Positions 27,360-35,023 of a DNA stretch of 64,000 nucleotides are shown here, one piece after another (position 1 is the first letter of the stretch; each line of letters starts with the position of its first letter). The notes beneath the pieces were generated by a model. The model saw nothing but the letters and a program-made list of their open reading frames with translations. It made no database searches and was not told where the DNA came from. The translations under genes and the position numbers were made by a program. The stretch lies in contig CM049308.1 of NCBI GenBank assembly GCA_026874595.1, forward strand, positions 47,127,327-47,191,326. Direction: 5' to 3'. The stretch comes from Sipunculus nudus. Lineage: Eukaryota > Annelida > Sipuncula > Golfingiida > Sipunculidae.

Positions 27360-27388
27360 CACGTCCAGAACCGCCGTGTCCATTTGCC
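27360..27388 (+). repeat. RAGL left terminal inverted repeat, 12-bp spacing
   Basis: CACGTCCA (27360-27367), 12 bases, then CCATTTGCC (27380-27388). CAC at the extreme end matches the invariant CAC of RAG heptamers and Transib ends. Bases 1-11 match the right end at 10 positions. The second block matches the right end CCGTTTGCC at 8 of 9 positions but lies 11 bp closer to the terminus. Confidence 0.8.
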
Positions 27389-27601
27389 TGTGCACAATTA
27401 ACGTTGTGTCTCTTGTCCGCTAGGGGCGTCACGTACGGAGCCTCAGATGGAGGCCGTAATGGTTATTCATATCAACTGCACTCACTGCCGTATATTTCCC
27501 TATTGAGGGCAAGCTGAACTTCATGACATGACAGATGTAAACAAAGGAAATGTGTGCGTTGATTTGGGACCCACTTACGGTGATTTTTTCACTATTTAAG
27601 A

Positions 27602-28287
27602 GTGAGTATGATTTTTTTAATGAAATAATTTTCCTAAAAAATTACTTTTTAATTTATATTTTTTTCTCAAAAACCCATGAAAACACATGTTAGGGGATAG
27701 TTCCCAAAGCAAGTCCAGGTCATGTCCCATGCAGCCTGCAAGATGGCTGGTCCTTCCACATCCTTCCATTTTTTTTCTGGACTCTGAAACCTCCTCCTAT
27801 ATATAGGTATATAAAATTGCTGTTTTGAGCTGTAAAATTGCACATTTGAGCTGTTTCAGCTATAAAATGCTTTTCTTTTTTTATAGAATGAATCTAAAAT
27901 GCTTTAAAAATGTCACTTTAAATTTCATGACCCAATTCAGTAATTGAGGGTTACTGGGGGGGGGGGGGGGGGAGCAGAAGATGCATCTTTAAAAAACTTC
28001 TATTTGTATACATTTATATGAAACATTAACAGAAACATAGCTTGCCATCCTCTAGAAAATCTGTAATAATTTTCTGACATAAAATTAATGTCTAAATATT
28101 GACATAAACAGCCAAAATAAAAAACAAAGTTATGATTTTTATAATAACTTTTCCCTTAGGCTATACTTCCATCTTTGTATTGGACATGTAGACCTTTGAA
28201 AATAAAATAGCTTTTGCAGTAACATGAATACATTAAAGCTTGCACATAATAAATAATTATACTTGCATGGATATTCTTTCAATACAG
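27602..28287 (+). other. Putative 5'-UTR intron of RAG1L
   Basis: AAGA|GTGAGTATG at 27601 is a good 5' splice site. TTCTTTCAATACAG at 28274-28287 is a good 3' splice site, eight bases before the presumed start codon. The stretch between has no open frame. It contains a long G tract near 27957-27972 and TATA-like sequence at about 27799-27817 that could alternatively be promoter. Inference only; transcript data are needed to confirm. Confidence 0.4.
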
Positions 28288-28295
28288 CTGCTCAA

Positions 28296-33346: not shown

Positions 33347-33359
33347 GAATTATTCTTTA

Positions 33360-34342
33360 TTACAAATTATCAGTGGTACTATCTGAATCTGTAGTTATGT
33401 TGATGGGTATTTTAGAATTGTTCGGTTCCACATTGGGGTCAATTGTTGGATCTGAGTCTGAGCTTACCTTTATAACTGAATAATCATGCTTTGGGGTGCT
33501 GTGGGCTAATGGTCCTTCATCATCTAACCTGAATGAAGTACTAAGAAATATCCGAGGTGGGTGTATATGATGGTTGACTCTGAGCTTGATGTTGAGGTAA
33601 TAAGTGAGGGAGTATGTATGGTCGGATGTTTAATGGCATCATCAGTACATGGCTGTGGTGAGATACTCCTTGAATGTGGACTATCACTGTCCCTGGGGGG
33701 TGTGAATACCTCATCAGACTGTGGGGGACTGGTTAATGAACTAAATGTTTGTTGGCTGAGGTGGTATTTGAAATGAAACATTGATGACTGGCTTTCCTGC
33801 TTTTGTATAACACTAGGGCCAGGGTCTGCTGGGTTTGTTTGGATAATAGACTCTGAGCTTGATGTTGAGGTAAAAAGAGAAGGAGTATGTATGGTCGGAT
33901 GTTTAATGGCATCATCAGTACATGGCTGTGGTGAGATACTCTTGGAATGTTGACTATCACTGTCCCTAGGGGGTGTGAATACCTCATCAGACTGGGGGGG
34001 ACTGGTTAATGAACTAAACATTTGTTGGCTTAGGTGGTATTTGAAATGAAACATTGATGACTGGCTTTCCTTCTCTTGTATAACACTAGGTCCAGGGTCT
34101 GATTGGTTTGCTTGGATAATAGACTCTGAGCTTAATGTTGAGGTAAAAAGAGAGGGACTGCATATATTATGCTGCTGCCTACACCTCAAAAGGCCAGGGA
34201 ATGTTTGGCTGGTTTGGGGACTAGAAGTTGGGGAGTGAGATGATGAAGTAAACAAAGAGGGGGTGGTTTCAATTTTGGTTGGTCGGGGCTCTTCACCATC
34301 ACTGTCAGATGCTGAAAGGCTCAAGGAGGCAGTTGTCTTCAT
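33360..34342 (-). CDS. Ser/Thr/Pro-rich ORF of the RAGL element; possible RAG2L N-terminus
   Basis: From ATG at 34342 the frame runs 272 codons to a stop at 33524 (MKTTASLSLSASDSDGEEPR ...). It is acidic at the start and then rich in Ser, Thr, Pro and Gln, with a 91-residue unit (PSLFTSTSSSESII ... FHFKYHLSQQ ... DEVFTPPRDSDS) present twice plus partial copies. After a frame change near 33540, another open stretch (LDDEGPLAHSTPKHDYSVIK and on to TTDNL) ends with TAA at 33360-33362, overlapping an AATAAA. A strong splice donor follows SVIK, in phase with MADDDWTF of RAG2L. It could therefore be the first exon of RAG2L, or a third gene. It has no recognised domain. Low-complexity composition suggests a disordered region. 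Confidence 0.5.
33575..34120 (-). repeat. 273-bp tandem duplication in the Ser/Thr-rich ORF
   Basis: Two direct copies, 33575-33847 and 33848-34120, are highly similar (for example GTATGTATGGTCGGATGTTT at both 33612 and 33885). The period of 273 bp is 91 codons, so the frame is kept. A partial further copy extends at each side. Confidence 0.85.
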
Positions 34343-34984
34343 ATTAACTATTAAATAGTTTATTTATAAACAATATTCAAATAATCTGTGCAAATATGCA
34401 CTTGTTACTTGTACACAGACACTATTCATACAGTTAAATTTTACCCCTGCTTCAGAATTCTATGTTCAAAGATCACCCTTTGACCTTACAAAGACTAGCA
34501 AAAATTAAAATAATATTATATATAAAACAATAAATAATCACCTTCAATTTTCCAGTTGGCTCGCCAAGAACCAGACAGGTGTCGATTACACAGCCATGTT
34601 ACGTCAGCTGATGATCACAATAATTCCAACAAATTAAGAACAGTTAAAAGTACACTAAAGGCTCAAATAATACAATCTAAACAAAACTGTATAAAACTGT
34701 CTATCTAACTATACCTATCTAAACATTAATTTATCTATAAAAATGGTAAATCTCGATCTATCCAGAATGACTGACTAATAACCTGTTGCGTAAATCAAGC
34801 GAGTAGCACCTAATGAACCATGCAACTGCAGACAGCTGAGCTCGAAGCGACGCGGAGTAACATGTGCAGGTGTTTACAAAACACCGAAGGGCATGACCGC
34901 GTGACCTTTCAGATGTCACCTGACCCTGTCGCTGATTGGTTGACCCGTAGGTACGTAAATATTCATGAGCTTTTTGACCCATTG
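34343..34984 (-). promoter_or_regulatory. Right subterminal region of RAGL, presumed promoter side of the minus-strand gene
   Basis: Non-coding DNA between the minus-strand start at 34342 and the right TIR. It is AT-rich near the start codon (TTTATAAACAATATTC, a TATA-like site about 30 bases upstream) and CpG-rich toward the end (about 34845-35000), including ACGTAC at 34951-34956. Assignment as promoter rests on position only. Confidence 0.35.
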
Positions 34985-35023
34985 GCAAACGGCACCAGCG
35001 AAGGTACAATATTTTTGGACGTG
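34984..35023 (-). repeat. RAGL right terminal inverted repeat, 23-bp spacing
   Basis: Read inward on the minus strand: CACGTCCA (35023-35016), 23 bases, then CCGTTTGCC (34992-34984). The terminal octamer is identical to the left end. The second block is 8/9 identical to the left CCATTTGCC but 11 bp farther in. Confidence 0.8.

What the first reader, a model, noticed from the sequence alone, without database searches (positions are those of the whole stretch)
27360..35023. Complete RAG1L-RAG2L (ProtoRAG-type) transposon in a probable mollusc kinase intron
Seen: convergent RAG1-like and RAG2-like reading frames inside CAC-ended inverted repeats with a 5-bp target duplication. Known: vertebrate V(D)J recombinase descends from such RAGL transposons, described from amphioxus, hemichordates, echinoderms and some protostomes. 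Inferred: this is a protostome copy that retains both genes and both ends, which is informative for the early history of the RAG system.
Basis: partly seen in the sequence, partly recalled or inferred. Interest (0 to 1): 0.95.

Follow-up and report, generated by a model that had tools for sequence, protein, structure and literature searches.

The report
Decayed RAG-like transposon in a kinase intron
A dead but still recognisable copy of the kind of jumping gene from which vertebrates built their antibody-gene cutting enzyme sits in a kinase gene of an animal genome, and the same genome holds a better-preserved relative with both genes open and both ends in place.

Summary
The finding is real. 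Window 27360-35023 is a RAGL (RAG1-like/RAG2-like) transposon copy: convergent RAG1L (+) and RAG2L (-), CACGTCCA ends, in an intron of a CDKL-type kinase gene. It is not a working copy: RAG1L is interrupted four times, RAG2L is broken and lacks the end of its PHD finger, and the target duplication is 4/5 (AATGA/CATGA). Homology to a sister copy on contig C7 ends at the same places (K2P 0.036). The genome (1.43 Gb) holds RAG1L at 24 or more places, with four groups of near-identical copies. The best preserved, on C10, is 12,220 bp with a 958-aa RAG1L frame, a 470-aa RAG2L frame, a perfect 5-bp duplication and an exact empty site (80/80) in a tandem tRNA-Ala array. Window RAG1L core identity is 45% to amphioxus ProtoRAG and 29% to mouse RAG1. 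Protostome RAGL transposons are published (Martin 2020; Tao 2022), so this is a new member of a known kind. One less expected result: left ends of three groups share CAC...TGCATA in strict register (box at 32-37), a bipartite, RSS-like layout. 'Mollusc' was not proven.

The parts
27355..27359 (.). left target duplication AATGA
   Evidence: matches 35024-35028 at 4 of 5
27360..27375 (+). left terminal inverted repeat, CACGTCCAGAACCGCC
   Evidence: homology with the C7 copy begins here; similar to subfamily C end CACGTTGAAAAACGCC
27391..27396 (+). second conserved box of the left end, positions 32-37 from the tip; TGCACA here, TGCATA in the C7 sister copy, the C12 fragment, C11, C17 and the four D copies read (C14 has TGCATC)
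28296..31238 (+). RAG1L pseudogene: RAG1 importin-binding-like N-terminus, RING (about 28953-29066), core, CTT; frame broken near 29.59, 29.88, 30.83 kb and by TAA at 30203-30205
   Evidence: Pfam RAG1 PF12940 E 3.9e-15, 4e-23, 1.3e-16 on three pieces
29915..29917 (+). first catalytic Asp codon (mouse D600 equivalent; numbering recalled)
30521..30523 (+). second catalytic Asp codon (mouse D708 equivalent; numbering recalled)
31008..31010 (+). third catalytic Glu codon (mouse E962 equivalent, recalled; the 6oem row reads Q at this column)
31158..31202 (+). CTT* zinc motif Cx2Cx3GHx4C (KCGICHMDGHNRLTC)
   Evidence: motif definition from PMC7204232
31301..32628 (-). RAG2L pseudogene: ATG at 32628-32626, kelch repeats, Pfam PHD match 31301-31369 lacking the last CxxC
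   Evidence: tblastn with the C10 RAG2L frame E 3.5e-52
33524..34363 (-). 279-aa serine-rich open frame upstream of RAG2L, largely a 273-bp tandem repeat; role unknown
35008..35023 (-). right terminal inverted repeat (reads CACGTCCAAAAATATT inward)
   Evidence: homology with C7 to 35021
35024..35028 (.). right target duplication CATGA
1702..1794 (+). CDKL-type kinase exon ([12 protein letters not shown] part)
20107..20337 (+). open frame holding the CDKL-type kinase exon upstream of the insertion
   Evidence: CDKL1 4agu E 7.8e-35, CDKL2 next at 9.9e-25
42424..42522 (+). CDKL-type kinase exon downstream of the insertion (approximate limits)

Best explanation
The feature is a pseudogenised copy of a RAGL cut-and-paste DNA transposon. 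An intact source element made RAG1L (DDE transposase/endonuclease with RING, NBD*, RNase H core and CTT*) and RAG2L (kelch plus PHD cofactor). The complex is inferred to have bound the two ends by their CAC tips, excised the element, and inserted it into a CDKL-type kinase intron with a 5-bp staggered attack, leaving a 5-bp duplication that has since lost one match. After landing, the window copy and its C7 sister decayed separately, because their RAG1L lesions are not shared. The same genome carries three further groups of near-identical RAGL copies; one (D, best seen on C10) keeps open RAG1L and RAG2L frames, both ends and a perfect duplication, and is a good candidate for a recently or presently active element. 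Shown: gene content, ends, duplications, empty site, copy relationships. Inferred: protein activity and excision chemistry, from homology to ProtoRAG and RAG.
For: RAG1L: Pfam RAG1 on three pieces; amphioxus RAG1L is the best PDB match, E 1.2e-50; core identity 270/604 to 6b40 and 174/592 to the 6xnx chain, mouse RAG1 by recall; three catalytic acidic codons present. RAG2L: kelch and PHD; the open relative on C10 passes Pfam RAG2 (25 bits, cut-off 21) and matches amphioxus RAG2L at E 7.9e-20. Same boundaries in a sister copy. RAG1L at 24 places (30 rows grouped by me; the tool calls its counts lower bounds). Five-bp duplications: C10 ACACA, C7:53.2 GGATG, C17 TATAC, C14:33.1 CTGTT all 5/5; C11 4/5; window 4/5. 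Exact empty site for C10, 80/80. RAG1L dN/dS 0.09-0.13 in the three distant pairs that gave an estimate. Window and C7 RAG1L breaks differ.
Against: Window duplication is 4/5, and the C7 sister shows no 5/5 duplication (a 3-bp loss at its right end would explain it, not shown). Window ends alone are reached by 14 of 500 shuffles. No expression or activity data. The own copies as a clade apart from amphioxus have weak support (87.4/69), and published mollusc, nemertean, RAGL_A, C and D sequences could not be added. Subfamily B ends were not found in 2 of 2 copies, and its two copies stay alike for over 2 kb upstream of where the first fetch ended, so B may have spread by segmental duplication. 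dS is about 2 in the distant pairs, so those ratios are rough, and one such pair gave none. Recent pairs range from 0.28 to 0.86, so relaxed selection on many copies is likely.
Confidence: 0.95

Rival explanations
1. A domesticated RAG1L-RAG2L host gene pair, as argued for sea urchins, rather than a mobile element.
For: Convergent RAG pair, long frames; domestication is reported for P. lividus (PMC9885083, passages).
Against: Window frames are broken; the same unit occurs with the same boundaries elsewhere at 87-98% DNA identity over its main pieces; relatives are bounded by duplications, and C10 by an exact empty site.
Confidence: 0.02
2. A Transib element or other DDE transposon carrying captured kelch and RING genes, not a RAGL.
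For: CAC ends and 5-bp duplications are shared with Transib (PMC7204232).
Against: RAG1L spans the RAG1 N-terminal region as well as the core (PF12560 and PF12940); all 16 PDB matches of the core piece are RAG1 or RAG1L chains; the entry recalled as Transib scores E 0.0026 against 9e-151 for amphioxus RAG1L with the C10 protein; the C10 RAG2L matches amphioxus RAG2L.
Confidence: 0.01
3. A contaminant or assembly artefact rather than a resident element of this animal genome.
For: The assembly does contain bacterial contigs.
Against: The element lies in an intron of a kinase gene on a 97.9-Mb contig, and relatives lie on many large contigs.
Confidence: 0.01

Closest known systems
Protostome RAGL_B transposons of bivalves and a nemertean (Martin et al. 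2020, PMC7204232)
   Same: Convergent RAG1L/RAG2L, RING, CTT* motif, PHD in RAG2L, CAC tips with an A-rich stretch near positions 8-12, 5-bp duplications, mixture of intact and decayed copies, several subfamilies in one genome. The subfamily D right end CACTTACAAATGTTTGC fits the published consensus CACTWMCAAACKTYKBB at 16 of 17 positions.
   Different: Window (A) and C ends read CACGTCC/CACGTT, not CACTW; a second box in register at 32-37 of the left end (not compared with the published TIRs, whose sequences were not held); D carries a Cys-rich frame upstream of RAG2L and A a serine-rich tandem-repeat frame (whether published elements have these was not checked).
ProtoRAG of amphioxus (BbRAG1L/BbRAG2L, PDB 6b40; PMC8289069)
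   Same: 45% RAG1L core identity; RAG1L-RAG2L pair; CAC tip; asymmetric ends with a second element (TR1, 27/31-bp spacer, TR5).
   Different: BbRAG2L lacks a PHD (PMC7204232); TR5 is GCCATCTTG at another distance; here the box is TGCATA, 24 bp after a 7-bp heptamer.
Vertebrate RAG1/RAG2 and the RSS
   Same: Same protein families and catalytic triad; CAC tip; the box starts within a base of where the nonamer of a 23-RSS starts (position 31).
   Different: 29% core identity; the box is not nonamer-like (ACAAAAACC); vertebrate RAG is domesticated. The acidic hinge of RAG2 was not looked for.
AanRAGL of Aureococcus, and RAGL TIRs including Notospermus (Tao et al. 2022, PMC9435367)
   Same: Bipartite, asymmetric ends already claimed as common to RAGL TIRs and RSSs; 5-bp duplications.
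   Different: AanRAGL spacers are 4/13 bp and its two genes point the same way.

Membership tests
RAGL transposon | RAG1-like transposase gene with RAG1 core and RAG1-type N-terminus | tested here: met
RAGL transposon | RAG2-like gene (kelch) in convergent orientation | tested here: met
RAGL transposon | terminal inverted repeats beginning CAC that delimit the element | tested here: met
   window and C7 sister share the left boundary, and the right one to 35021 of 35023
RAGL transposon | 5-bp target site duplication | tested here: inconclusive
   window 4/5; 5/5 in 4 of 7 copies with both ends read: C10, C7:53.2, C17, C14:33.1
RAGL transposon | DDE catalytic residues | tested here: met
   all three codons present in the window, but in different open pieces
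RAGL transposon | intact reading frames (autonomous element) | tested here: not met
   window RAG1L and RAG2L broken; both frames open at C10
RAGL_B family | groups with amphioxus RAG1L_B rather than RAG_A | tested here: inconclusive
   45% vs 29% identity; the tree holds one B and one A reference, no C or D
RAGL_B family | PHD with invertebrate C/H pattern in RAG2L | tested here: inconclusive
   window PHD truncated; C10 and C11 RAG2L carry a PHD by Pfam
Transib | Transib transposase, no RAG2L, no RAG1 N-terminus | tested here: not met
   RAG1 N-terminus and RAG2L are present; PDB matches
Active transposon | transposition or cleavage in an assay, or polymorphic insertions | not testable with these tools
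   only near-identical copies (core 99% aa among C10, C7:53.2, C3:52.1) and an empty site in a repeat

The most novel reading that the evidence does not exclude
Protostome RAGL ends are bipartite and asymmetric in the same sense as a 23-RSS: a CAC tip plus a second recognition box (TGCATA at 32-37; in subfamily D part of a 9-mer TTGCATAAT that starts at 31) held at a fixed distance on the left end only, while the right ends of subfamilies A and C share a different block (GCTGG at 25-29 and TGCCAA at 37-42). If the box is a transposase site read by NBD*, spacer-measured, asymmetric signals are an old property of RAGL elements and not a vertebrate addition, against the proposal that protostome RAGL reads only about 15 bp. 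The genome would also offer a living RAGL element (subfamily D) on which to test it. A host promoter box (POU/octamer-like, resemblance recalled) is the main alternative.
Probability: 0.3. Interest if true: 0.7.

Novelty: new member of a known kind. Interest (0 to 1): 0.45.

Why it matters
RAGL transposons are the relatives from which V(D)J recombination came. The window copy by itself adds one more fossil. The genome around it matters more: four groups of near-identical RAGL copies in one animal, one of them with open genes, perfect duplications and an exact empty site, would allow the end-recognition rules of protostome RAGL to be tested directly, including whether a second box at a fixed spacing is read by the transposase.

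Tried and rejected
Species: the Egg_lysin search was empty with no positive control. COX1 gave 11 rows, ten with long frames on small contigs (two of these read, both bacterial; a third contig, C123, bacterial by eye) and one 51-position fragment on C5, so no mitochondrial gene. The mollusc haemocyanin domain was empty with no positive control. The species and even the phylum stay unproven.

Subfamily B: ends not found by a CAC plus duplication scan (for C2, for C7:16.3), by the TGCA-spacing pattern, nor by a homology boundary.

Errors of mine, corrected. An earlier count said that the C7 sister lost the third catalytic Glu; that is wrong: its 78-bp deletion (30926-31003 in window terms) ends before that codon (31008-31010); it does carry N for the first catalytic D. 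The two PDB rows were one column out of register; one search corrects them, and the identities to those rows must be ignored. The dN/dS value for the window N-terminal part was out of frame; one search replaces it (0.52). A note gives the Cys-rich repeat as x8; it is C-x2-C-x7-C-P-x-H.

A perfect 5-bp duplication for the window was rejected. Literature: the lists showed no title or abstract start reporting RAGL transposons in further molluscs after Martin 2020 and Tao 2022;'s 4,238 papers only 20 were listed, and I opened only PMC7204232, PMC9885083, PMC8355894, PMC8289069, PMC9435367, PMC10294476 and PMC9334734. PMC9334734 holds the letters 'ragl' only in an author name. Tao 2022 reports RAG1L in 173 species without naming them in the part that I read, so this species may be among them.
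Full report
What is in the window. Between 27360 and 35023 (7,664 bp) lie, on the + strand, four overlapping pieces of a RAG1-like protein from an ATG at 28296 to a TGA ending at 31238, and on the - strand pieces of a kelch/PHD protein from an ATG at 32628 downwards. Pfam names the first RAG1: importin-binding region E 2.8e-08 and RING fingers in the N-terminal piece, and RAG1 recombinase E 3.9e-15, 4e-23 and 1.3e-16 in three core pieces; the 127-aa piece between them matched nothing useful. The best PDB match of the 207-aa core piece is amphioxus RAG1L (6b40, E 1.2e-50); the other 15 matches at E 0.01 or better are RAG1 chains. 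The kelch protein matches the RAG2L frame of the C10 copy (E 3.5e-52), and that frame passes Pfam's RAG2 cut-off (25 bits against 21) and matches amphioxus RAG2L at E 7.9e-20.

State of the copy. The three catalytic acidic codons are present at 29915, 30521 and 31008, and the CTT* motif Cx2Cx3GHx4C at 31158-31202, but the RAG1L frame is broken near 29.59, 29.88 and 30.83 kb and stopped at 30203-30205. RAG2L is broken as well and its PHD lacks the last CxxC; about 1.4 kb that the C7 sister has between the two genes is missing. The duplication is AATGA/CATGA, 4 of 5.

Are the ends real? Scanning CAC...GTG pairs around the genes, the pair 27360/35023 scores best of 19 x 12 combinations, but 14 of 500 single-base shuffles of the arms do as well, so the pair alone is weak evidence. 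The strong evidence is the sister copy at C7:29132842-29141717: homology begins at 27360 and ends at 35021, while the flanks are unrelated. The two copies differ at 258 of 7,417 aligned sites (K2P 0.036) and by 37 gaps. Their RAG1L breaks are not shared, so each appears to have landed with a working gene and decayed on its own. With a neutral rate of 1-3e-9 per site and year (assumed, not measured) the split would be roughly 6-18 million years old. At the C7 right end the tip and duplication are not intact; a 3-bp loss would account for both, which is inference.

Where it sits. The middle exon matches CDKL1 best in the PDB (E 7.8e-35; CDKL2 next).

The rest of the genome. The window lies on contig C3 of a 1.43-Gb assembly of 153 contigs. 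The RAG1L core finds 30 rows, which I group into 24 places; the tool states that such counts are lower bounds. Twenty-two of the 24 came with DNA and were aligned; two of these (C3:75.27, C14:21.76) had fewer than 450 core residues and were dropped, so 20 copies plus 6b40 and 6xnx (mouse RAG1 by recall) went into an LG+G4 tree. Subfamily A is the window and C7:29.1 (94% core identity, support 100/100). B is C2:3.87 and C7:16.3 (97%), with an old relative C11:62.8. C is C11:72.6, C14:33.1 and C17:17.0 (96-97%). D is C10:30.5, C7:53.2 and C3:52.1 (99%), C3:75.2 and two C13 copies (94-96%; together 99.8/98), with a looser relative C3:57.3 (74%, 52.9/67). Older, badly broken copies lie on C12, C14, C15 and C9. 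A, B and C form one group (98.6/99) apart from D and the older ones (99.8/88). The own copies as a group apart from amphioxus have weak support (87.4/69). Window core identity is 270/604 to amphioxus RAG1L and 174/592 to mouse RAG1.

Pairing. RAG2L was found beside RAG1L at 13 of the 24 places: window, C7:29.1, C10, C11:72.6, C17, C14:33.1, C12:31.6 and C14:34.4; C7:53.2, C3:52.1, C13:53.58 and C3:75.2; C7:16.3. At the second C13 copy only DNA reaching into RAG2L was seen; C11:62.8 gave one weak match (E 3.4e-4); C2 gave none in 14 kb; six others gave none in the roughly 1.5-kb flanks held; two had no DNA.

The best-preserved element. C10:30485511-30497730 (12,220 bp) has RAG1L open for 958 aa with the three catalytic residues, RAG2L open for 470 aa with kelch and PHD (its start codon must come from an upstream exon), ends CACATACAGATG and CACTTACAAATG, and a perfect duplication ACACA. 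It sits in a tandem array of tRNA-Ala genes with a 305-bp unit. Joining its flanks minus one duplication gives a sequence found without mismatch over 80 bases in uninterrupted units: an exact empty site. Other perfect duplications are GGATG (C7:53.2), TATAC (C17) and CTGTT (C14:33.1; its right tip reads CAT); C11 is 4/5. So of seven copies with both ends read, four have 5/5, two have 4/5 including the window, and one (C7:29.1) is altered. The right ends of C3:52.1 and the others were not read; C3:52.1 diverges before the right end. Subfamily B ends were not found in 2 of 2 copies, and its two copies remain alike to the edge of what was fetched, about 3.9 kb upstream of RAG1L, so segmental duplication is possible there.

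Selection. RAG1L dN/dS is 0.09 for C10 against C3:57.3, 0.13 for C11 against the window and 0.12 for C2 against C10 (116 codons only); dS is about 2, close to saturation, and C11 against C2 gave no estimate. Among closer pairs, partly dead, it ranges from 0.28 to 0.86. This fits elements that must keep a working transposase to spread and then decay, but the numbers are rough.

The left ends. In strict register from the tip, the left ends of A (C7 copy), C (C11) and D (C10) agree at CAC.T..A.A...G..........T..C...TGCATA; from 38 to 81 there is then no three-way match. No single-base shuffle of 20,000 gives a three-way run of six between 13 and 100, one of 20,000 reaches the 15-base window score, and of 625 relative slides only the true register gives it. 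I chose the C7 copy to represent A. The window copy reads TGCACA (a run of four), the C12 fragment TGCATA, C17 TGCATA, C14 TGCATC, and all four D copies read TGCATA. The three subfamilies share ancestry, so the test shows that the box was kept, not why; what speaks for constraint is that they are only about 50-62% identical in protein and that the DNA next to the box is not kept. Right ends lack it at that place; A and C share GCTGG at 25-29 and TGCCAA at 37-42 instead, D does not. ProtoRAG has a similar plan (heptamer, 27/31-bp spacer, TR5; PMC8289069, passages), and Tao et al. already claim a common bipartite structure for RAGL TIRs including Notospermus (PMC9435367, part 1 of 2 read). Martin et al. 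instead propose that protostome RAGL reads about 15 bp (PMC7204232, abstract, Results and one Discussion section read). Whether the box here is a transposase site or a promoter site for RAG1L is open.

Verdict. The window copy is a new, dead member of a published kind of transposon. What deserves follow-up is the set of relatives in the same genome, above all D on C10, and the boxed left ends. Statements on what is in print rest on the searches and 103 of an open-licence library only.

Noticed in passing
L142 949-1344 and L035 1-44 (C10:30488548-30488943): Cys-rich frame with three C-x2-C-x7-C-P-x-H repeats just upstream of RAG2L in subfamily D; open in C7:53.2, C3:75.2 and one C13 copy, broken in C3:52.1 and the other C13 copy. 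It stops at TAG, followed by TCATG at a GTGAGA donor; joined to the acceptor before the RAG2L frame this gives ATG in frame with RAG2L (inference from the sequence). No family passes its Pfam cut-off.
   Followed up: partly
window 33524-34363 (-): 279-aa serine-rich open frame built largely of a 273-bp tandem repeat, on the RAG2L strand upstream of RAG2L; similar frames are in the C7 sister.
   Followed up: partly
L034 4710-7703 (-) (C2:3.87 Mb): RAG1L frame of 997 aa with no RAG2L found in 14 kb: a truncated transposon copy or a candidate domesticated gene.
   Followed up: partly
L005 4876-4977 (C12:61761875-61761976): A lone 102-bp left end of subfamily A, 92% identical, between flanks that resemble each other by eye; apart from AT repeats no other part of the element matched in 9.5 kb.
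   Followed up: no
L014 and L019 (C13:53.577-53.585 Mb): Two subfamily D copies in opposite orientation, with a RAG1L N-terminal part on one strand abutting a C-terminal part on the other.
   Followed up: no
contigs C60, C61, C62, C66, C72, C74, C75, C89, C123 (L037-L043): Ten long COX1 rows over nine small contigs. C60 and C89 were read and are bacterial and nearly identical to each other, with no GTDB hit above 58% identity among the 80 kept; C123 looks like a cbb3-type oxidase cluster by eye; the rest are presumed bacterial from their frame lengths. Possibly an undescribed associate of the animal.
   Followed up: partly
L132 1-3069 (C17), L124, L149 and the 69-bp matches: Tandem and mirror-image arrays of tRNA-Ala (GGC) genes with a 305-bp unit; matches to the unit lie on many contigs.
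   Followed up: no
window 3890-4726 (-): 278-aa frame that looks like a non-LTR reverse transcriptase fragment (judged by eye, not tested).
   Followed up: no
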